64,000 bases of DNA, from positions 1,586,501-1,650,500 of the forward strand of contig NZ_CP096147.1 of the NCBI RefSeq assembly GCF_026016445.1, given 5' to 3'. The notes below the pieces were generated by a model. That model saw only the letters and a list, made by a program, of their open reading frames with translations, was not told the origin of the DNA and ran no database searches. Positions 16,727 to 30,304 of this stretch are shown here, piece by piece. This DNA comes from Cognatishimia activa. GTDB lineage: Bacteria > Pseudomonadota > Alphaproteobacteria > Rhodobacterales > Rhodobacteraceae. Position 1 is the stretch's first letter. Each line of letters opens with the position of its first letter. The translations under genes were made by a program, and so were the position numbers.

Positions 16727-16742
16727 TAAATAGGTAATTTAC

Positions 16743-17111
16743 GCACAGGGAGCCTATAAGCCGGATTCTGTCCAAGAGGTTGCCCTCTCTGGATGACCAT
16801 TCATCTAAAGCACCTGTTGCCAGATGCCCTCTAGCTGCCAACCCGGACCTGCTCGGGGCAAGACACCCCTGCCTTACGGCGCGCGATCCCTATTTGGCAT
16901 TGCTCCTGGTGGGGCTTGCCTTGCCGGTTCTGTTGCCAGTCCCGCGGTGGGCTCTTACTCCACCGTTTCACCATCACCCTGACAAGCAGGGCAGTCTCTT
17001 CTCTGTGGCGCTATCCCTTGGGTTTCCCCAGCCGGGCGTTACCCGGCACCATTGCCTTGTGGAGTCCGGACTTTCCTCGAGTTGCCCCGCGGCCATCCAG
17101 CCCCCTGTGCG
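16743..17111 (-). ncRNA. rnpB: RNase P RNA (type A)
   Basis: Catalytic RNA of ribonuclease P, which trims the 5' leader of tRNA precursors. On the minus strand the 5' GCACAGGG pairs with the 3' CCCTGTGC as helix P1. Conserved core sequences are present: GAGGAAAGTCCGGACTCC near the 5' end, GGGTGATGGTGAAACGGTG in the middle, and ACAGAATCCGGCTTATAGG at the 3' end. Length of about 369 bases is normal for type A. The start is supported by a well-placed promoter. Confidence 0.97.
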
Positions 17112-23505: not shown

Positions 23506-24324
23506 ATGGCTGAACTGTTAACTTTTGAAAATCTGGGCAATCTCTTGATGCTCTGCTTCCTGCAGGCGGTGCTGGGGTTTGATAACCTGCTATATATCTC
23601 CATTGAAAGCCAACGCGCGCCGGTTGCGCATCAGCGCGCGGTACGCTTCTGGGGTATCATCATTGCGGTGGCATTGCGGGTTGTGCTGCTCTTCACGATG
23701 ATCCGTTTGATCGACTCTCTGTCCGAACCCTTCTGGGTCTTCAATAGCCCCGGCCTGATCGAAGGTGGCATCAACTTTGCGACTTGTGTCTTCATTCTGG
23801 GTGGTATTTTCATCATTTACACGGCTGTGAAAGAAATCAGCCACATGCTGACTGTCCAGCATCTTGATGCGGATGTGCATCACAAATCCGGTAAATCGGC
23901 TGTGAAAGTTGTGGCATTGATTGTCATGATGAACCTGATTTTCTCTTTTGATTCCGTGCTTTCTGCGCTAGCGATCACTGATGTCTTCCCAGTTCTGGCC
24001 ATTGCGATCCTCTTGTCTGGCGTCGCCATGCTGGTTTTGGCCGATGGCGTCACGAAATTCCTTGAAAAGAACCGCATGTATGAGGTTCTGGGCCTATTCA
24101 TTCTGTTGATCGTGGGTGTGGTCCTTTTGGGCGAAGCCGGTGTGGCGGCCTCCCATGCAATGCATGACGATGCGCTGGCGCTGAAGTTCTTTGGCTACGC
24201 TCTCGAACCGATGTCCAAGACCACCTTCTACTTCTCAGTTGTGGTTCTCTTCATGGTCGAGATCATCCAGTCAGGCTATGCACGCAAGCTCAATATGGAA
24301 CGTGTAGCAGAGACGCGTCACTAA
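23506..24324 (+). CDS. TerC-family membrane protein
   Basis: Integral membrane protein of the TerC family, named from tellurite-resistance loci; several relatives (Alx, MeeY/MeeF types) export Mn2+ to the periplasm, some onto exoenzymes. 272 residues with seven to eight helices. The acidic metal motifs are present: QAVLGFDNLLYISI near residue 20 and NLIFSFDSVLSALAI near residue 148, with FDxxL in each half, as expected for the TerC repeat. ATG 23506 was chosen for the AGGACGAGG upstream; the open frame extends to 23377 without a good ribosome site. The 200-base leader holds an imperfect hairpin at 23382-23418, and the known Mn2+ riboswitch (yybP-ykoY) pattern was not recognised. It precedes the XpaC/TelA genes. 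Confidence 0.9.
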   Translation: MAELLTFENLGNLLMLCFLQAVLGFDNLLYISIESQRAPVAHQRAVRFWGIIIAVALRVVLLFTMIRLIDSLSEPFWVFNSPGLIEGGINFATCVFILGGIFIIYTAVKEISHMLTVQHLDADVHHKSGKSAVKVVALIVMMNLIFSFDSVLSALAITDVFPVLAIAILLSGVAMLVLADGVTKFLEKNRMYEVLGLFILLIVGVVLLGEAGVAASHAMHDDALALKFFGYALEPMSKTTFYFSVVVLFMVEIIQSGYARKLNMERVAETRH

Positions 24325-24387
24325 CAGGCTGCGAGTGCAAATGATTGCGGCGGCAAGGCACCGCCGTGATCCCTATTTCAATTTCTT

Positions 24388-24446
24388 CCCCCTAGTAACG
24401 AAAGCCGAAACTTCCTAAGTTTCTGGCAGGGTTACTGGGGGTTTTT
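24388..24446 (+). promoter_or_regulatory. Nested hairpin and T run between terC and the mini-protein gene
   Basis: The outer arms CCCCCTAGTAAC (24388-24399) and GTTACTGGGGG (24431-24441) pair perfectly apart from one bulged base. Inside them GAAACTT-CCT-AAGTTTC (24407-24423) makes a perfect 7-bp hairpin. TTTTT follows directly (24442-24446), then the mini-protein ATG at 24452. The structure can be an intrinsic terminator or attenuator of terC read-through. Equally, the GGGGG that is the only purine-rich ribosome site for the mini-protein is buried in the stem, allowing translational control. Confidence 0.65.
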
Positions 24447-24451
24447 CATTT

Positions 24452-24538
24452 ATGTCCCAAACGGGTTTGCAAAAACTGGCGTTTGTTCTGCTTGTCATAT
24501 TGATGTTCTATGTCTCCATCGCAGGAGCAGGTTCATAA
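24452..24538 (+). CDS. 28-residue single-helix membrane mini-protein
   Basis: Short open frame, ATG 24452 to TAA 24538, whose product starts MSQTGLQK and then has one hydrophobic helix, LAFVLLVILMFYVSIAG, ending AGS. The last A of the stop is the first base of the xpaC ATG (TAATG), the signature of translational coupling, and the frame has the GGGGG of the preceding hairpin 10 bases upstream. It is too short for most gene finders. I know no family for it. Likely a small inner-membrane partner or leader peptide for the XpaC-TelA operon; if it is only a leader, its role is to gate translation of xpaC. Expression is inferred. Confidence 0.6.
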   Translation: MSQTGLQKLAFVLLVILMFYVSIAGAGS

Positions 24539-25425
24539 TGGCAAAGCGATACGGCGGAAAATTCAGCCCGGATGGGGCATCAAGCGAGCACGACACTCAA
24601 AAGCCCGGCCCGTTCCTGAATGCAAAACGCAGCAAAGCGGGTGGGCGCACAAATATGCTCTTCATTGCGCCCTTGCCTCTGATCTGGAAGGCCTTCACCT
24701 CTGAGCCGATTGTTATGGCTCAGTACCTGATGGCGCTTGGGTTGTTGCTCTTCGCGGCTTGGATGACCCGCGAAGGCGTGATTGCACAAGAAGCCTACGA
24801 TGCCCGCAAGGTCGCGCGTCGTCCGGCTCTACCTCGCAAGATGGTGGGGTCTTTGCTGACTGGCGCAGGCCTGGCGATGGCCGGGATCGCTGGCTTTGGC
24901 CCAGTTGATGCGATAATTTTCGGCGTCTTGGGGACCGTTATTCATAGCTTCGCCTTCGGTTTTGATCCTTTGAAAGACAAAGGTGCAGAGGGTATCGACC
25001 AATTTCAAACTGACCGCGTGGCGCGCGCTGTGGAAGAAGCAGAGAGCCATCTTGCCTCAATGTCAGATGCAATCCTGCGCTCTGGCGATCGTCAGATGGA
25101 GCGCCGCGTCGATCAATTTCAGAAAACTGCACGCGATCTCTTTCGCTCGATCGAAGATGACCCGCGTGATCTGACCTCAGCGCGCAAATATCTGAGCGTC
25201 TATCTGAGGGGTGCGCGTGACGCGACAATCAAGTTCGCGGATGTCTGTAGCCGCAACCAAAGCGCGGATGCACGCGCAGGCTACGCCGCCCTGCTCGATG
25301 ATCTGGAGCAGAACTTTGCGGCCCGCACGCAGAAGCTTTTGGAAAACGATCACTCTGATCTCACCATCGAAATCGACGTGCTGCGCGAACGCCTGCAGCG
25401 CGAAGGCATCCGAAACGATGCATAA
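24538..25425 (+). CDS. XpaC-family membrane protein
   Basis: 295 residues. An N-terminal positively charged segment (about 1-40) with unusual KRYGGKFSPDG leads to hydrophobic helices at about 55-75 and 98-135 (LLTGAGLAMAGIAGFGPVDA), then a long soluble helical domain with DRVARAVEEAESHLASM, DQFQKTARDLFRSIEDDP and a C-terminal DLTIEIDVLRERLQREG coiled coil. This is the XpaC (5-bromo-4-chloroindolyl phosphate hydrolysis) family, whose enzymatic label comes from an old phenotype and is doubtful. In Bacillus, xpaC is next to a TelA homologue (yaaN), as here. Translationally coupled to the mini-protein. Confidence 0.85.
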   Translation: MAKRYGGKFSPDGASSEHDTQKPGPFLNAKRSKAGGRTNMLFIAPLPLIWKAFTSEPIVMAQYLMALGLLLFAAWMTREGVIAQEAYDARKVARRPALPRKMVGSLLTGAGLAMAGIAGFGPVDAIIFGVLGTVIHSFAFGFDPLKDKGAEGIDQFQTDRVARAVEEAESHLASMSDAILRSGDRQMERRVDQFQKTARDLFRSIEDDPRDLTSARKYLSVYLRGARDATIKFADVCSRNQSADARAGYAALLDDLEQNFAARTQKLLENDHSDLTIEIDVLRERLQREGIRNDA

Positions 25426-25450
25426 AACTCTATCCAACGAGGGGAATTAA

Positions 25451-26650
25451 ATGTCTGACACAGTACGTCAAAAAGCCGAAGCCGCGCTGGCGGAAGTTGA
25501 ACAAGTCACCGCAGTTGTGCTGGCAGAGCCTGTAGAAGCCAACGCCATTGTGCCGCTGGCTGATGCCGATGCGCCAACAAGCGAAGAAATCACAAAGCGC
25601 ATGGCAGAGCTCGATATGAGCGACACGAATTCCATCGTGACCTTTGGCTCCGCCGCGCAATCTGAGCTGCAGGAAATCAGCCAGGCGATGCTACAGGACG
25701 TGCGTAACAAAGACGTCGGGCCAGCCGGCGACAGCCTGCGCAATATCGTGACAACAATCCGGGGCTTCTCGATCTCTGAACTGGACGTGCGTCGTGAACG
25801 CTCTTTCTGGGAGAAACTGCTTGGCAAGGCCGCGCCTTTTGCCAAATTCACCGCGCGATTTGAGGAAGTTCAGGACCAGATAGACCGTATCACCGACAAT
25901 CTGCTGGATCACGAACACACCTTGATGAAAGACATCAAATCCCTGGATGTGCTCTATGAAAAGACGCTGACATTCTACGATGAGCTGGCGCTTTATATCG
26001 CGGCGGGCGAAGCCAAGATCGCTGATCTGGATGCAAATGACATCCCAGCAAAAGAAGCGGAGGTTCAGGCCGCGCCTGAAAACGAACAGGTCATGAAAGC
26101 GCAGGAACTGCGTGATCTGCGGGCTGCCCGGGATGATCTGGAACGCCGTGTACATGACCTGAAACTGACACGTCAGGTGACCATGCAGTCCCTGCCCTCG
26201 ATCCGTCTGGTTCAGGAAAACGACAAGTCGCTGGTCACCAAGATCAACTCGACGCTCGTGAATACTGTTCCGCTATGGGAAACCCAGCTGGCACAGGCAG
26301 TGACGATCCAACGCTCTGCCGAGGCTGCGGCTGCGGTGCGGGATGCGAATGATCTGACAAACGAACTGCTGACCGCAAATGCAAAGAACCTGCGCGAAAG
26401 CAACAAGATGATCCGCGAAGAGATGGAACGTGGTGTCTTTGACATCGAAGCCGTTAAACAAGCCAATGCAGACCTGATCGGCACCATCGAGGAAAGCCTG
26501 CAAATCGCGGACGAAGGCAAAGCCAAACGGGCTGCTGCCGAAGAGGACCTTAAAGCGATGGAAGCAGAACTGCGCGACACGCTGGCAGCGGCGAAAGCCA
26601 AGGCAACAGGTCTGGGCGATACCGTAGCAACCTCTGCAGGCGATGCGTAA
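25451..26650 (+). CDS. TelA-family toxic-anion resistance protein
   Basis: Cytosolic alpha-helical protein of the TelA/KlaA family, 399 residues, linked to tellurite and other toxic-anion or cell-envelope-antibiotic resistance in various bacteria; biochemical mechanism unknown. About residues 1-55 are a flexible acidic tail, then long heptad-like helices run to the end. Landmarks are SFWEKLLGKAAPFAKFTARF near residue 118, then HEHTLMKDIKSLDVLYEKTL, RQVTMQSLPSIRLVQENDKS and a C-terminal ANADLIGTIEESLQIADEGK. GAGGGGAAT precedes the start. It is 25 bases after xpaC and 6 bases before the lipoprotein gene, so it is in one operon. Confidence 0.9.
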   Translation: MSDTVRQKAEAALAEVEQVTAVVLAEPVEANAIVPLADADAPTSEEITKRMAELDMSDTNSIVTFGSAAQSELQEISQAMLQDVRNKDVGPAGDSLRNIVTTIRGFSISELDVRRERSFWEKLLGKAAPFAKFTARFEEVQDQIDRITDNLLDHEHTLMKDIKSLDVLYEKTLTFYDELALYIAAGEAKIADLDANDIPAKEAEVQAAPENEQVMKAQELRDLRAARDDLERRVHDLKLTRQVTMQSLPSIRLVQENDKSLVTKINSTLVNTVPLWETQLAQAVTIQRSAEAAAAVRDANDLTNELLTANAKNLRESNKMIREEMERGVFDIEAVKQANADLIGTIEESLQIADEGKAKRAAAEEDLKAMEAELRDTLAAAKAKATGLGDTVATSAGDA

Positions 26651-26656
26651 TCCAGA

Positions 26657-27586
26657 ATGCCACGCAGCCTTTTGACATCAGCCCTATTTGCAGGCGCTTT
26701 GAGCGCCTGCACGTTGACGTCTGAAGGCACATCGCCCCAAGCGACACCTGCGGCGCTGCCACTTCCGGCTGCGCCAAGTCAGCAAAGCGTTGCAATTGGA
26801 AAATACTATTCCAATCTGCAGGCTGATCTTCTGGTGCAAGGTCTTCTGCGCAAGGATGGCGGCGGACCTGACACGCCTTATACAGCAGACATGCTGGCAC
26901 GCAATTTCGAGCGTATTGCCTTCTACGACGAACACGCCGTGGGCACGCGACTGCAAAGTGCGGATGGCGAAGCGCGCCAGCTGGTACGCTGGCAAGATCC
27001 GGTTCGGATCAAAGTGGAATTCGGTCCCAGTGTTTCGAGAGATCAACGAGAGGCTGACAGCCAATTCGTCAGCGCCTTTGCCGACAGGCTTTCCAAGCTG
27101 ACCAACCACCCTATCCGTCCTGCCATAGTCCGCCCCAATTTTCATGTTTTCGTTTTTGGCGAAGATGATCGCGCAACCATGCAAACCCGCATCAATGAGG
27201 TCCTTCCCGGATTGTCGAGCGCCTCTCGTGCCATCATCCAAAACCTGCCGCGTGACATGCATTGCCTGATCCTCGCCAATAGCGCGGATGATGCAGTGCC
27301 GCAGATCAAATCCGCCGTTGCCATCGTGCGCGCCGAACACCCCGATCTGCTGCGTCAAACCTGTTTCCATGAGGAAATCGCGCAAGGTCTCGGCCTGCTC
27401 AATGACAGCCGCTACGCGCGGCCCTCGATTTTTAACGACGACGATGAATTTGCCTATCTCACCAGCCACGATGAAAAGCTGTTGCAAATGCTTTATGATC
27501 CACGGCTTAAGATCGGCATGACGGCTGACGAAGCCCGCCCCATCGTCAAAACCATGGCCCGCGCTCTGACCGCGCAGGCGCTATAA
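26657..27586 (+). CDS. DUF2927 lipoprotein
   Basis: Predicted lipoprotein of 309 residues, with lipobox ALSACT and Cys18, then a low-complexity Pro/Ala linker and a globular DUF2927 domain from about residue 90. The domain contains NLPRDMHCLILANS, the motif CFHEEIAQGLGLLNDS near residue 237 and a following SIFNDDDEFAYLTSHDEKLLQMLYDPRLK. HEEIxQGLGL looks like a zinc-protease active-site helix, so a peptidase or hydrolase is possible but not shown; the family is otherwise unstudied. Starts 6 bases after telA and ends 26 bases before the SPFH gene, which places an extracytoplasmic protein within this operon. Confidence 0.83.
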   Translation: MPRSLLTSALFAGALSACTLTSEGTSPQATPAALPLPAAPSQQSVAIGKYYSNLQADLLVQGLLRKDGGGPDTPYTADMLARNFERIAFYDEHAVGTRLQSADGEARQLVRWQDPVRIKVEFGPSVSRDQREADSQFVSAFADRLSKLTNHPIRPAIVRPNFHVFVFGEDDRATMQTRINEVLPGLSSASRAIIQNLPRDMHCLILANSADDAVPQIKSAVAIVRAEHPDLLRQTCFHEEIAQGLGLLNDSRYARPSIFNDDDEFAYLTSHDEKLLQMLYDPRLKIGMTADEARPIVKTMARALTAQAL

Positions 27587-27612
27587 CGATATGATGAAGT
27601 AAGGAGTGTCCC

Positions 27613-28728
27613 ATGGGTATTTTCGATTTTCTGACAGGCGAATTTATCGATGTCATTCACTGGACGGATGACACGCGTGACACGATGGTCTGGCGTTTTG
27701 AACGCGAAGGCCATGAGATCAAATACGGTGCCAAACTGACCGTCCGTGAAGGACAGGCGGCGGTATTTGTGCATGAGGGCCAGTTGGCGGATGTTTTCAC
27801 GCCGGGTCTTTATATGCTTGAGACCAACAACATGCCTGTGATGACAACACTGCAGCACTGGGATCACGGTTTCAAAAGCCCGTTCAAATCCGAAATCTAC
27901 TTCGTCAATACAACGCGCTTTAATGACCTGAAATGGGGCACCAAAAACCCCATCATGGCACGTGACCCAGAGTTCGGCCCAGTGCGTCTGCGCTCCTATG
28001 GCACCTATTCGATCCGCGTCACAGACCCTGCGCGTTTCCTGACAGAGATCGTTGGCACCGATGGTGAATTCACCATGGATGAGATCTCTTTCCAGATCCG
28101 AAATATCATTGTGCAGGAATTCTCTCGGGTCATTGCAGGCTCAGGCATTCCCGTGCTGGATATGGCCGCGAATACGGCTGAGTTTGGCAAGATCGTTGCA
28201 GAGGCGATTGATCCGGTCATTGCGCAATATGGTCTGTCGATCCCAGAACTTTACATCGAGAATATTTCACTGCCCCCCGCAGTCGAACAGGCGCTGGATG
28301 ACCGCACCTCGCGTGGCATCGCAGGCAATCTGAATGACCACATGAAATGGAAAGCGGCTGAGGCCCTGACAACGGGTGGCGCGGCAGGCGACTCCATGGG
28401 CATGGGCATGGGTGCGGCCATGGGATTGCAAATGGCGCAGGGCATGATGGGTGGCGGCAATGCCGGTCCTTGGGGTGCAGCTCCTCAAGCGACCCAACCT
28501 GCTCCACCACCTCCACCTGTTGAGCACGTTTGGCACATTGCTGAGAATGGCAAAACCACAGGTCCATTCTCCAAGGCGCGGCTCGGACAGATGGCCTCTG
28601 AGGGCAAGCTGAAACGCGAGACCTATGTCTGGACCGCAGGTCAAGACGGCTGGAAAGCCGCAGGTGACGTGCAGGAACTCGCGCAACTTTTCACGATTAT
28701 GCCACCGCCTCCGCCTCCTGGCGCATAA
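27613..28728 (+). CDS. SPFH-domain protein with C-terminal GYF_2 domain (YdjI-like)
   Basis: 371 residues. About 1-250 form an SPFH/band-7-like domain similar to Bacillus YdjI: MGIFDFLTGEFIDVIHWTDD, TVREGQAAVFVHEGQLADVF, RSYGTYSIRVTDPARFLTEI and LYIENISLPPAVEQALDDRT. A Gly/Met linker (MGMGMGAAMG, then QMAQGMMGGG) and a Pro run lead to a GYF_2 domain at about 303-362 (WHIAENGKTTGPFSKARLGQ, YVWTAGQDGWKAAGD), ending PPPPPPGA. No transmembrane helix is visible, so membrane attachment would be peripheral or via partners. GYF_2 domains bind proline-rich sequences; both this protein and the next gene's N-terminus are proline-rich, hinting at a complex. AAGGAG ribosome site. Confidence 0.88.
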   Translation: MGIFDFLTGEFIDVIHWTDDTRDTMVWRFEREGHEIKYGAKLTVREGQAAVFVHEGQLADVFTPGLYMLETNNMPVMTTLQHWDHGFKSPFKSEIYFVNTTRFNDLKWGTKNPIMARDPEFGPVRLRSYGTYSIRVTDPARFLTEIVGTDGEFTMDEISFQIRNIIVQEFSRVIAGSGIPVLDMAANTAEFGKIVAEAIDPVIAQYGLSIPELYIENISLPPAVEQALDDRTSRGIAGNLNDHMKWKAAEALTTGGAAGDSMGMGMGAAMGLQMAQGMMGGGNAGPWGAAPQATQPAPPPPPVEHVWHIAENGKTTGPFSKARLGQMASEGKLKRETYVWTAGQDGWKAAGDVQELAQLFTIMPPPPPPGA

Positions 28729-28761
28729 ATCCAAACCTTAAAAATAAAACACCGGACGACC

Positions 28762-29877
28762 ATGACCAACATGCCGCCCCCACCACCCGCGCCGAAAGCG
28801 GCGCATCGCTTTCCCTGTGACCAATGCGGGGCGGACTACCGGTTTGATCCCAAAGAGTCGCAACTGGTCTGTGATCACTGCGGCCATACTTCTGAAATGG
28901 CGGACATGGGCCCCTGGGCTGGGTCCATCAATGAGCTCGACTTCAAAACTGCGATCAACAACCAACTCCCGGCACAGGAAATCGAAGAGACCCGCGTCTC
29001 CACCTGTCCGAACTGCGCAGCGCAAGTCGAGTTTGATGCAATCACCCACTCCAAGGAGTGCCCGTTCTGCGCCACGCCTGTGGTCACGGACACAGGTACA
29101 CACCGGCACATCAAACCAAAAGGTGTGCTGCCTTTCGCTTTGAATGAACGTGCCGCAAATGGCGCCATGACGGACTGGCTTGGTAAGCTCTGGTTTGCCC
29201 CCAACGGATTGCAGGAATACGCCCGTAAAGGTCGGAAAATGGATGGCATCTACGTCCCCTATTGGACTTTTGATGCCGACACGAAATCCTCGTATCGCGG
29301 TGAACGCGGCACGGAATATCACGAGACCCGCACCGTCATGCGGGATGGCAAGCAAGAACAGCAGACGGTCACCAAAGTGCGCTGGCGCAATGTTTCGGGC
29401 CGAGTGGCGCGGTTCTTCGATGATGTGCTTGTTTTGGCCTCCAGAAGTCTGCCGAAGAAGTTCACCGATGCGCTGCAACCATGGGACTTGGACGCGCTTG
29501 AACCTTACCGCCCGGAATTCCTGGCGGGCTTCCGCGCGGAAGGCTACGCGGTGGAACTGGACGAAGGTTTCGCCGAGGCCCGCGCCCATGTGGACCGCGT
29601 GATCCTGCGCGATGTGAAATTTGACATTGGCGGGGATCGCCAGCGGGTGCATAACATCGACACAACCGTGTCTGACGTGACCTTCAAGCACATCCTCCTG
29701 CCGGTCTGGATGGCCGCTTATAAGTATCGTGGCAAAACATATCGTTTTGTCGTGAATGGCCGCACAGGGCGCGTTCAAGGCGAACGCCCCTGGTCAGCAT
29801 GGAAAATTGCCTTCGCTGTGCTTCTGGGCGCCATTGTGGCAGCCGGAGTGGGTTACGTAGTGGCGATGAACCAGTAA
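28762..29877 (+). CDS. Zinc-ribbon membrane-anchored protein (YdjG-like)
   Basis: 371 residues. After MPPPPPAP, a first zinc ribbon (CDQCGADYRFDP, then CDHCGH) spans about residues 19-43 and a second (CPNCAAQ, then CPFCATP) about 80-107, as in TFIIB/primosomal-type ribbons. The middle domain (about 110-335) includes VLPFALNERAANGAMTDWL, YVPYWTFDADTKSSYRGERG and a C-terminal FKHILLPVWMAAYKYRGKTY with VNGRTGRVQGERPWS, the family fold shared with Bacillus YdjG-type proteins. One helix, KIAFAVLLGAIVAAGVGYVV, at about 347-366 anchors it. Catalytic function is not evident. It is the last gene of the run; the convergent hsp20 gene begins 10 bases on. Confidence 0.85.
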   Translation: MTNMPPPPPAPKAAHRFPCDQCGADYRFDPKESQLVCDHCGHTSEMADMGPWAGSINELDFKTAINNQLPAQEIEETRVSTCPNCAAQVEFDAITHSKECPFCATPVVTDTGTHRHIKPKGVLPFALNERAANGAMTDWLGKLWFAPNGLQEYARKGRKMDGIYVPYWTFDADTKSSYRGERGTEYHETRTVMRDGKQEQQTVTKVRWRNVSGRVARFFDDVLVLASRSLPKKFTDALQPWDLDALEPYRPEFLAGFRAEGYAVELDEGFAEARAHVDRVILRDVKFDIGGDRQRVHNIDTTVSDVTFKHILLPVWMAAYKYRGKTYRFVVNGRTGRVQGERPWSAWKIAFAVLLGAIVAAGVGYVVAMNQ

Positions 29878-29887
29878 TCCGCAGGTT

Positions 29888-30304
29888 TTACCCTTTTGAG
29901 ATCTTAACGGTTTTCGCCTCATTCACCTCTGGCGCGGATTTTGGAATCATAACGGCCAATACACCGTCTTTCAGGTCAGCTGTTACGCCCTCTGCATCTG
30001 CATCCGCCGGCAGTCTGAAGTTGCGGCTGAAGGCCCCGTATTGCCGCTCGGAAAAGAACCAAGTGTCACCTTTGTCCTCTTTTTCAGTCCGTTTTTCGCC
30101 TTTGATGGTCAACACATCTCCATGAACCGACACATCGATGTCACCTTCATCAACTCCCGGCACTTCCATAGAAATCCGGTAAGCTTCTTCGTCAGACGAG
30201 GCCTCGCTGGCCGGGGTCAACCAATCAGCCAGACGCGTGCTCATCGTGCGGAACGGTTCATAAAGCGCGGGCCACAGGCCCAGACCATGTGTTTTCTCAA
30301 CCAT
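29888..30304 (-). CDS. Small heat-shock protein, Hsp20/alpha-crystallin family
   Basis: ATP-independent holdase chaperone of 138 residues from ATG 30304, which has GGAGGAG 7 bases upstream. The alpha-crystallin domain, about residues 40-136, includes YRISMEVPGVDEGDIDVSVH, IKGEKRTEKEDKGDTW, ERQYGAFSRNFRLP and the C-terminal VNEAKTVKISKG; an I-x-I style tail is not obvious. The start two frames upstream (30355) lacks a ribosome site. I do not see a clear heat-shock promoter in the 136 bases before it. Convergent with the zinc-ribbon gene. Confidence 0.92.
   Translation of the reverse strand: MVEKTHGLGLWPALYEPFRTMSTRLADWLTPASEASSDEEAYRISMEVPGVDEGDIDVSVHGDVLTIKGEKRTEKEDKGDTWFFSERQYGAFSRNFRLPADADAEGVTADLKDGVLAVMIPKSAPEVNEAKTVKISKG

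What the first reader, a model, noticed from the sequence alone, without database searches (positions are those of the whole stretch)
23506..29877. terC, mini-protein, xpaC, telA, DUF2927 lipoprotein, SPFH-GYF and zinc-ribbon genes form one compact block
Seen: seven genes on one strand with gaps of 6-35 bases from the mini-protein on, or TAATG overlap, covering every compartment (multi-pass membrane TerC, one-helix mini-protein, XpaC, cytosolic coiled-coil TelA, a lipoprotein with a HEEIxQ helix, an SPFH-GYF_2 scaffold, and a zinc-ribbon membrane protein). Known: TerC and TelA carry names from tellurite resistance; Bacillus has xpaC next to a TelA homologue (yaaN), and separately ydjG/ydjI next to a PspA gene. 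Inference: here the two modules are fused into one locus without PspA, suggesting a membrane-integrity or toxic-anion response complex. The proline-rich ends of the SPFH and zinc-ribbon proteins could be ligands for the GYF_2 domain.
Basis: partly seen in the sequence, partly recalled or inferred. Interest (0 to 1): 0.78.

Follow-up and report, generated by a model that had tools for sequence, protein, structure and literature searches.

The report
Conserved TelA-SPFH membrane gene block
A row of neighbouring genes, including an unnamed 28-residue membrane peptide, is kept together in the same order in many bacteria and probably builds a complex that protects the inner cell membrane, in a group of bacteria that mostly lacks the usual protector protein PspA.

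Summary
The seven genes are real and at the stated coordinates, but they form two units. terC is an optional neighbour (13 of 38 family genomes read). The operon proper is mini, xpaC, telA, DUF2927, SPFH-GYF, zinc-ribbon (ZnR), with a conserved two-box element before mini (28 of 59 upstreams; 0 of 247 control upstreams). The core order xpaC-telA-SPFH-ZnR recurs in other Alphaproteobacteria and in Gammaproteobacteria. New here: (1) the mini-protein is a conserved partner of xpaC: 42 of 50 loci by rule, 49 by eye, against 11 of 247 other genes by rule. (2) The DUF2927 lipoprotein is predicted to have a metzincin (MMP-like) fold with a degenerate zinc motif, so probably a pseudoprotease. (3) No PspA was found in this genome, nor in 30 of 36 family genomes. 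Best reading: an inner-membrane stress complex, related in parts to Bacillus YdjG/YdjI and to XpaC/YaaN. Strict replacement of PspA by TelA is not supported. Function is inferred; I found no experiment on this whole block.

The parts
23506..24324 (+). terC, 272 aa, TerC-family multi-pass membrane protein; optional neighbour, not in the compact run
   Evidence: Pfam PF03741; seen in 13 of 38 family genomes
24386..24395 (+). box 1 (TTCCCCCTAG) of the conserved two-box upstream element
   Evidence: box 1 with box 2 at exactly 23 bases in 28 of 59 upstreams, 0 of 247 controls
24414..24422 (+). box 2 (CCTAAGTTT) of the element, -10-like
24452..24538 (+). mini-protein gene, 28 aa, one TM helix, stop overlaps the xpaC start (TAATG)
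   Evidence: conserved peptide; pN/pS 0.26 in the genus; 424 database relatives at E<=0.1, best 2.9e-9
24538..25425 (+). xpaC, 295 aa, two candidate TM helices plus C-terminal PF10112 domain
25451..26650 (+). telA, 399 aa, no TM, predicted very long helices (128-207, 210-326, 332-385)
   Evidence: PF05816; model pLDDT 72.5
26657..27586 (+). DUF2927 lipoprotein, 309 aa, predicted metzincin fold with degenerate zinc motif HEEIAQGLGLLND
27613..28728 (+). SPFH (Band_7_1) protein with C-terminal GYF_2 domain flanked by PPP motifs, 371 aa, no TM
28762..29877 (+). ZnR: four CxxC (two zinc ribbons), a central domain and a C-terminal TM segment, 371 aa

Best explanation
This is an inner-membrane maintenance (envelope-stress) operon of Rhodobacterales. 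mini (one TM) and XpaC (two TM) form the membrane platform. TelA, a soluble protein of very long helices, docks on XpaC's cytosolic domain. The SPFH-GYF protein, which has no membrane segment of its own, oligomerises and is held at the membrane by the tail-anchored ZnR protein, as Bacillus YdjI depends on YdjG and YdjH. Its GYF_2 domain and flanking PPP motifs cross-link subunits or partners. In Rhodobacterales a periplasmic lipoprotein with a metzincin fold and a degenerate zinc site (DUF2927) adds a non-proteolytic sensing or binding arm. Tellurite and cell-wall antibiotic phenotypes of TelA would follow from membrane damage. SHOWN by computation: genes, order, conservation, mini family, upstream element, fold prediction. 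INFERRED: complex formation, membrane docking, topology, stress role, promoter function, loss of protease activity.
For: Order conserved in the family and, without DUF2927, in four other alphaproteobacterial families and seven gammaproteobacterial loci. mini is nearly as regular before xpaC as xpaC itself is before telA. PspA not found in 9 of 9 genus genomes or in 30 of 36 family genomes. Relatives of the parts act in envelope stress: in Lactococcus, xpaC-like llmg_1115 and telA1 rise 10.3- and 3.4-fold and the double mutant is partly impaired when a membrane protein is overproduced (PMC3139573, passages); Enterococcus xpaC rises 7-fold in a liaR mutant (PMC10269926, passages); a Listeria telA-like mutant is more sensitive to nisin and tellurite (reported in PMC12791056, passages); Bacillus YdjI and PspA lose membrane recruitment without YdjG or YdjH (PMC8581546, passages). 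Chromosomal telA is listed as a tellurite-resistance gene of R. sphaeroides (PMC6955997 and PMC9604106, passages). TelA of Paracoccus was detected as protein in day-7 plastic biofilm (PMC11962581, passages); which TelA locus that is was not checked.
Confidence: 0.58

Rival explanations
1. A metal or toxic-anion (Ter-type) resistance locus: TerC moves Mn2+ or another metal, TelA and the rest counter tellurite and oxidative damage.
For: TerC and TelA family matches. Of 10 family genomes with a TerC match in this score band, 9 have it at this locus (compare). telA is listed as a tellurite-resistance gene of R. sphaeroides (passages). TerB matches occur elsewhere in 21 of 22 family genomes.
Against: terC not seen in 25 of 38 family genomes (one of these, L048, has only 0.6 kb before xpaC). 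TerD found in 0 of 22 family genomes. The core travels with SPFH/ZnR, and no TerC match was seen beside it, in the other Alpha- and Gammaproteobacteria read.
Confidence: 0.22
2. A true PspA substitute: TelA polymerises on the membrane like PspA/ESCRT-III and ZnR/SPFH recruit it as YdjG/YdjI recruit PspA.
For: PspA not found in the genus and in most of the family; TelA is predicted to be made of very long helices; SPFH and ZnR resemble YdjI and YdjG in build.
Against: No profile similarity of TelA to PspA; structure matches not specific; both present together in several genomes.
Confidence: 0.12
3. Neighbouring genes kept together by slow rearrangement near rluB and dtd, with no joint function beyond the xpaC-telA and SPFH-ZnR pairs.
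For: rluB and often dtd flank the block in many family genomes; insertions occur between SPFH and ZnR.
Against: The four-gene core recurs in other Alphaproteobacteria and in Gammaproteobacteria; short gaps and the TAATG overlap.
Confidence: 0.08

Closest known systems
Bacillus subtilis pspA-ydjGHI operon (YdjI SPFH, YdjG zinc-ribbon TM)
   Same: An SPFH protein taken to be soluble next to a zinc-ribbon membrane protein; PspA system for membrane stress (PMC8581546 passages; PMC11237479 section 19 read whole)
   Different: No PspA or YdjH in the block; the SPFH C-terminus is GYF_2 with PPP motifs, not the zinc ribbon described for the Bacillus protein; xpaC-telA and mini added. Sequence homology of ZnR to YdjG not tested.
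Firmicute xpaC-telA/yaaN pair (Lactococcus llmg_1115-1116, Listeria lmo1966-1967)
   Same: xpaC-like gene next to telA; envelope-stress expression (passages)
   Different: No SPFH, ZnR or mini mentioned in the passages read
Ter (tellurium-resistance) stress systems
   Same: Share TerC and TelA families (passages in PMC7824862)
   Different: TerD found in 0 of 22 family genomes, this one included
Metzincins (matrix metalloproteinases, snapalysin)
   Different: Of HExxHxxGxxH/D (motif recalled) only the first His and the Glu remain; 7 of 8 other DUF2927 copies read lack that His too
GYF domain of 'Adventurous gliding motility protein X' (PDB 7z3c)
   Same: GYF_2 domain of the SPFH protein matches it, E 9.2e-10
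   Different: The rest of the protein is an SPFH scaffold

Membership tests
PSP (PspA-type) system | PspA/IM30 gene in the locus or genome | tested here: not met
   0 matches in G000 and in 9 of 9 genus genomes; control rings in 9 of 14 known genomes
PSP (PspA-type) system | SPFH plus zinc-ribbon membrane partner as in ydjI/ydjG | tested here: inconclusive
   Same kind of domain layout; no direct comparison with the Bacillus sequences
TelA family | PF05816 above cut-off | tested here: met
   358 bits against cut-off 30
XpaC family | PF10112 above cut-off | tested here: met
   97.4 bits against 29.8
Ter system | TerD-family protein in the genome | tested here: not met
   0 of 22 family genomes including G000; control rings in 2 of 14
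Ter system | tellurite phenotype | not testable with these tools
   Needs experiment; R. sphaeroides telA is cited for tellurite
Metzincin peptidase | metzincin fold | tested here: met
Metzincin peptidase | HExxHxxGxxH/D zinc motif | tested here: not met
   HEEIAQGLGLLND; the second His position is Ala in the window; His238 in 40 of 41, Glu239 in 41 of 41. That His238 lies where the first zinc His lies was not checked on the model
PspA/ESCRT-III fold (TelA) | fold match | tested here: inconclusive
Anti-phage defence | PADLOC model match | tested here: not met
   0 of 6 proteins; mini not scanned

The most novel reading that the evidence does not exclude
mini-XpaC-TelA-SPFH-ZnR is a distinct membrane-maintenance machine with its own obligatory one-helix peptide subunit. 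In Rhodobacterales it carries a pseudo-metzincin lipoprotein that senses or binds envelope damage from the periplasm, and it serves as the main system of this kind in bacteria that have lost PspA.
Probability: 0.3. Interest if true: 0.8.

Novelty: new variant of a known kind. Interest (0 to 1): 0.6.

Why it matters
If right, it gives an experimental handle on TelA and XpaC, families with names that say little about their work (tellurite resistance; 5-bromo-4-chloroindolyl phosphate hydrolysis). It adds a conserved microprotein to their likely complex and offers a candidate answer to how Rhodobacteraceae without PspA protect their inner membrane. It also gives DUF2927 a predicted fold and predicts that it is not a working protease.

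Tried and rejected
Terminator between terC and mini: the window alone has a GC-rich inverted repeat followed by TTTTT (24391-24446). The other seven genus members read have no T-run there, so I rejected it; what is conserved is the two-box element.

Known regulator for the two-box element: the CenR motif is TGA-N8-TGA (PMC9275681, passages), so not CenR. A text search for the box found 506 papers, 15 listed, none usable by title. Regulon idea: TTCCCCCTAG occurs five times in the genome against eight for the reversed control. One copy lies before a TerB pair; there the exact box is kept in 1 of 8 genus genomes read, with one- or two-base variants in four others. Not supported. The first pattern for this had wrong spacing limits and its zero means nothing.

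Riboswitch or known RNA in the leader: none.

TelA as PspA homologue: hhalign probability 0.5%; XpaC against PspA 5.7% (eight PspA sequences). The TelA fold search gave only long-helix matches, pore-forming toxins and coiled coils among them; I draw nothing from these. PspA or ESCRT-III chains were not among the rows shown, which excludes nothing.

Mutual exclusion of TelA and PspA: PspA found in 4 of 8 module genomes and in 6 of 12 genomes with SPFH-ZnR (9) or ZnR alone (3). I picked these 20 from the 80 loci.

Sequence search of TelA and DUF2927 in solved structures: no real relative. DUF2927 in print: no paper in the held library. Quick trees: support too weak; not used.

Rows dropped before counts; upstreams were taken only where a mini start had been listed. 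Of 68, seven gammaproteobacterial ones (none with the pair by the scan), L169 (23 bases only) and L133 (same DNA as L049) were left out, giving 59. Seven further loci without a listed mini start were scanned later: 2 of 7 have the pair; set A loci L045, L053, L055, L057, L059, L060 and L061 and the regions were not scanned. The pattern was defined on these same sequences, and related genomes are not independent, so the count is descriptive; two of 52 loci (L132, L169) were too near the contig end. The eight misses were inspected by eye, the control genes were not; 3 of 68 SPFH proteins were cut and left out. In the scripts the group called Rhodobacterales means loci with DUF2927.
Full report
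OBSERVATION. The window lies in a 3.21 Mb single-contig genome. The seven ORFs are as described: terC 23506-24324; mini 24452-24538 (28 aa, MSQTGLQKLAFVLLVILMFYVSIAGAGS); xpaC 24538-25425; telA 25451-26650; DUF2927 26657-27586; SPFH-GYF 27613-28728; ZnR 28762-29877. From mini on, gaps are -1, 25, 6, 26 and 33 bases; terC ends 127 bases before mini. Pfam confirms the families of terC, xpaC, telA, DUF2927 and SPFH-GYF; ZnR has only zinc-ribbon hits under the cut-offs. None of the six larger proteins matches a PADLOC defence model.

GENE ORDER IN THE FAMILY. Of 36 genomes placed in the same family, 34 have an xpaC match. I read 39 regions from 38 family genomes (counted). xpaC-telA adjacent on one strand: 37 of 38 (in G031 they are about 200 kb apart). 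telA-DUF2927 and DUF2927-SPFH: 35 of 38. SPFH and ZnR both found on one strand: 33 of 38; of the other five, L061 has ZnR cut by the contig end, L044 and L094 show none in the stretch read, and L057 and L059 show neither. terC in front: 13 of 38.

BEYOND THE FAMILY. The four-gene order xpaC-telA-SPFH-ZnR stands in four other alphaproteobacterial families (G166, G092, G152, G099). These are 4 of the 9 non-family genomes whose TelA region I fetched, out of 11 with a TelA match in the class sample of 142. It also stands in seven gammaproteobacterial loci (L101 Competibacteraceae, L108 and L125 'Gammaproteobacteria bacterium', L115 Granulosicoccus, L117 and L165 Thiothrix, L120 Methylococcaceae) and in an alphaproteobacterial MAG (L100). 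SPFH-ZnR without xpaC-telA nearby occurs in records named as Bacteroidetes (L102, L119), Kiritimatiellota (L126, L135), Planctomycetes (L104, L175), Kangiellaceae (L123, L146), a gammaproteobacterium (L131) and also the Rhodobacterales member Rhodosalinus (L114). In the 80 loci DUF2927 is in the block in 44; their titles are Rhodobacterales except L127 (Alphaproteobacteria MAG) and L133 (titled Enemella evansiae, but carrying the same upstream DNA as the family genome G010). In seven DUF2927 regions read from six other class members the five-gene block is absent. Against uniformity: 13 further TelA loci from outside the family in the phylum sample have neither SPFH nor ZnR beside telA, and some TelA loci pair with what reads like a solute-binding protein (no family search made) and a weaker XpaC relative.

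THE MINI-PROTEIN IS REAL. In the genus (8 sequences, 25 codons) pN/pS is 0.26, against 0.41 to 3.94 in the other five frames; variable columns by codon position are 14, 5 and 21 of 25. A rule (ATG start, 24-46 aa, hydrophobic, ending near the next start) finds it before 42 of 50 xpaC genes and before 11 of 247 other genes of the same loci. By eye, 7 of the 8 misses show the same kind of peptide without a start that met the rule, so 49 of 50. It is there in 7 of 8 loci without DUF2927 by the rule, Gammaproteobacteria included. Alpha and gamma versions share place, size, a basic spot and the helix, but no invariant column (mean column identity 29%), so their common origin rests mainly on position. 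A profile search finds 424 proteins at E<=0.1, best 2.9e-9; the 120 listed are mostly 27-31 aa, named 'hypothetical protein' or not at all, with no Pfam family.

WHERE THE OPERON STARTS. Upstream of mini lies TTCCCCCTAG-N18-CCTAAGTTT (24386-24422), with the two YTAR cores exactly 23 bases apart. All 8 genus upstreams read have both boxes; 28 of 59 upstreams do (30 of 59 have box 1), against 0 of 247 upstreams of telA, DUF2927, SPFH, ZnR and terC, and 2 of 7 left-out upstreams. About half of the loci lack it. The spacing equals that of -35 and -10 promoter elements; that it is a promoter is inference. It lies between terC and mini, which argues that terC is a separate unit. Still, of 10 family genomes with a TerC match of 121-132 bits, 9 carry it here (compare), so the neighbourhood is not random.

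PSPA. PspA (PF04012) was not found in 9 of 9 genus genomes and was found in 6 of 36 family genomes; the control works. But 5 of those 6 also have an xpaC match. Outside Rhodobacterales PspA occurs in 4 of 8 module genomes and in 6 of 12 genomes with SPFH-ZnR (9) or ZnR alone (3), all chosen by me. A strong TelA match occurs in the 8 of 8 and in none of the 12, one of which has a diverged TelA. So in this sample TelA goes with the full core, but it does not exclude PspA.

LITERATURE (what I saw). PMC11237479: section 19 whole and one find. Passages only: PMC8581546, PMC12791056, PMC3139573, PMC10269926, PMC7824862, PMC6955997, PMC9604106, PMC10936438, PMC9275681, PMC11962581; also PMC10470753, PMC7240162, PMC7159879 and PMC3581485, which added nothing. 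O'Gara 1997 and Collins 2010 are not held; their results come from citing passages. Searches listed no paper that by title or abstract start treats this block. Several of those lists were capped, subscription journals are missing, and a 2012 comparative study of Ter systems (recalled, not read) may discuss TelA neighbourhoods.

VERDICT. A conserved operon, probably an inner-membrane stress complex, with a newly recognised one-helix partner and a predicted pseudo-metzincin. terC is an optional neighbour. Replacement of PspA in the strict sense is not supported.

Noticed in passing
L180 (G000:C1:668001-668869, minus strand): A tandem TerB pair (PF05099) lies elsewhere in the genome behind a TTCCCCCTAG box; TerB matches occur in 21 of 22 family genomes examined, but the exact box is kept in only 1 of 8 genus genomes.
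   Followed up: partly
L074:3977-7566 (G000:C1 about 1303000-1306600): The second DUF2927 protein of this genome sits between an AAA ATPase (weak MoxR match) and a VWA CoxE-like protein, so DUF2927 joins two different neighbourhoods.
   Followed up: no
L145, L118 and ten other loci, between SPFH and ZnR: A group of related membrane proteins is inserted in 12 loci; two of the three tested match cytochrome b561 (PF01292), the third matched nothing.
   Followed up: partly
L044, L047, L049, L118, L133 (same DNA as L049), L140: A second, diverged xpaC copy directly upstream of xpaC.
   Followed up: no
L063, L073, L082, L083, L084: Another TelA neighbourhood: telA beside what reads like a solute-binding protein and, in four of the five, a weaker XpaC relative; family not searched.
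   Followed up: no
window 29888-30304, minus strand: Hsp20 small heat-shock gene convergent with ZnR; a match is also found near the block in L040, L041, L048 and L051.
   Followed up: no
L133: Record titled Enemella evansiae carries the same DNA upstream of the block as the family genome G010 (L049), so the title or the assembly looks wrong.
   Followed up: no
window 16741-17108, minus strand: RNase P RNA, class A.
   Followed up: no
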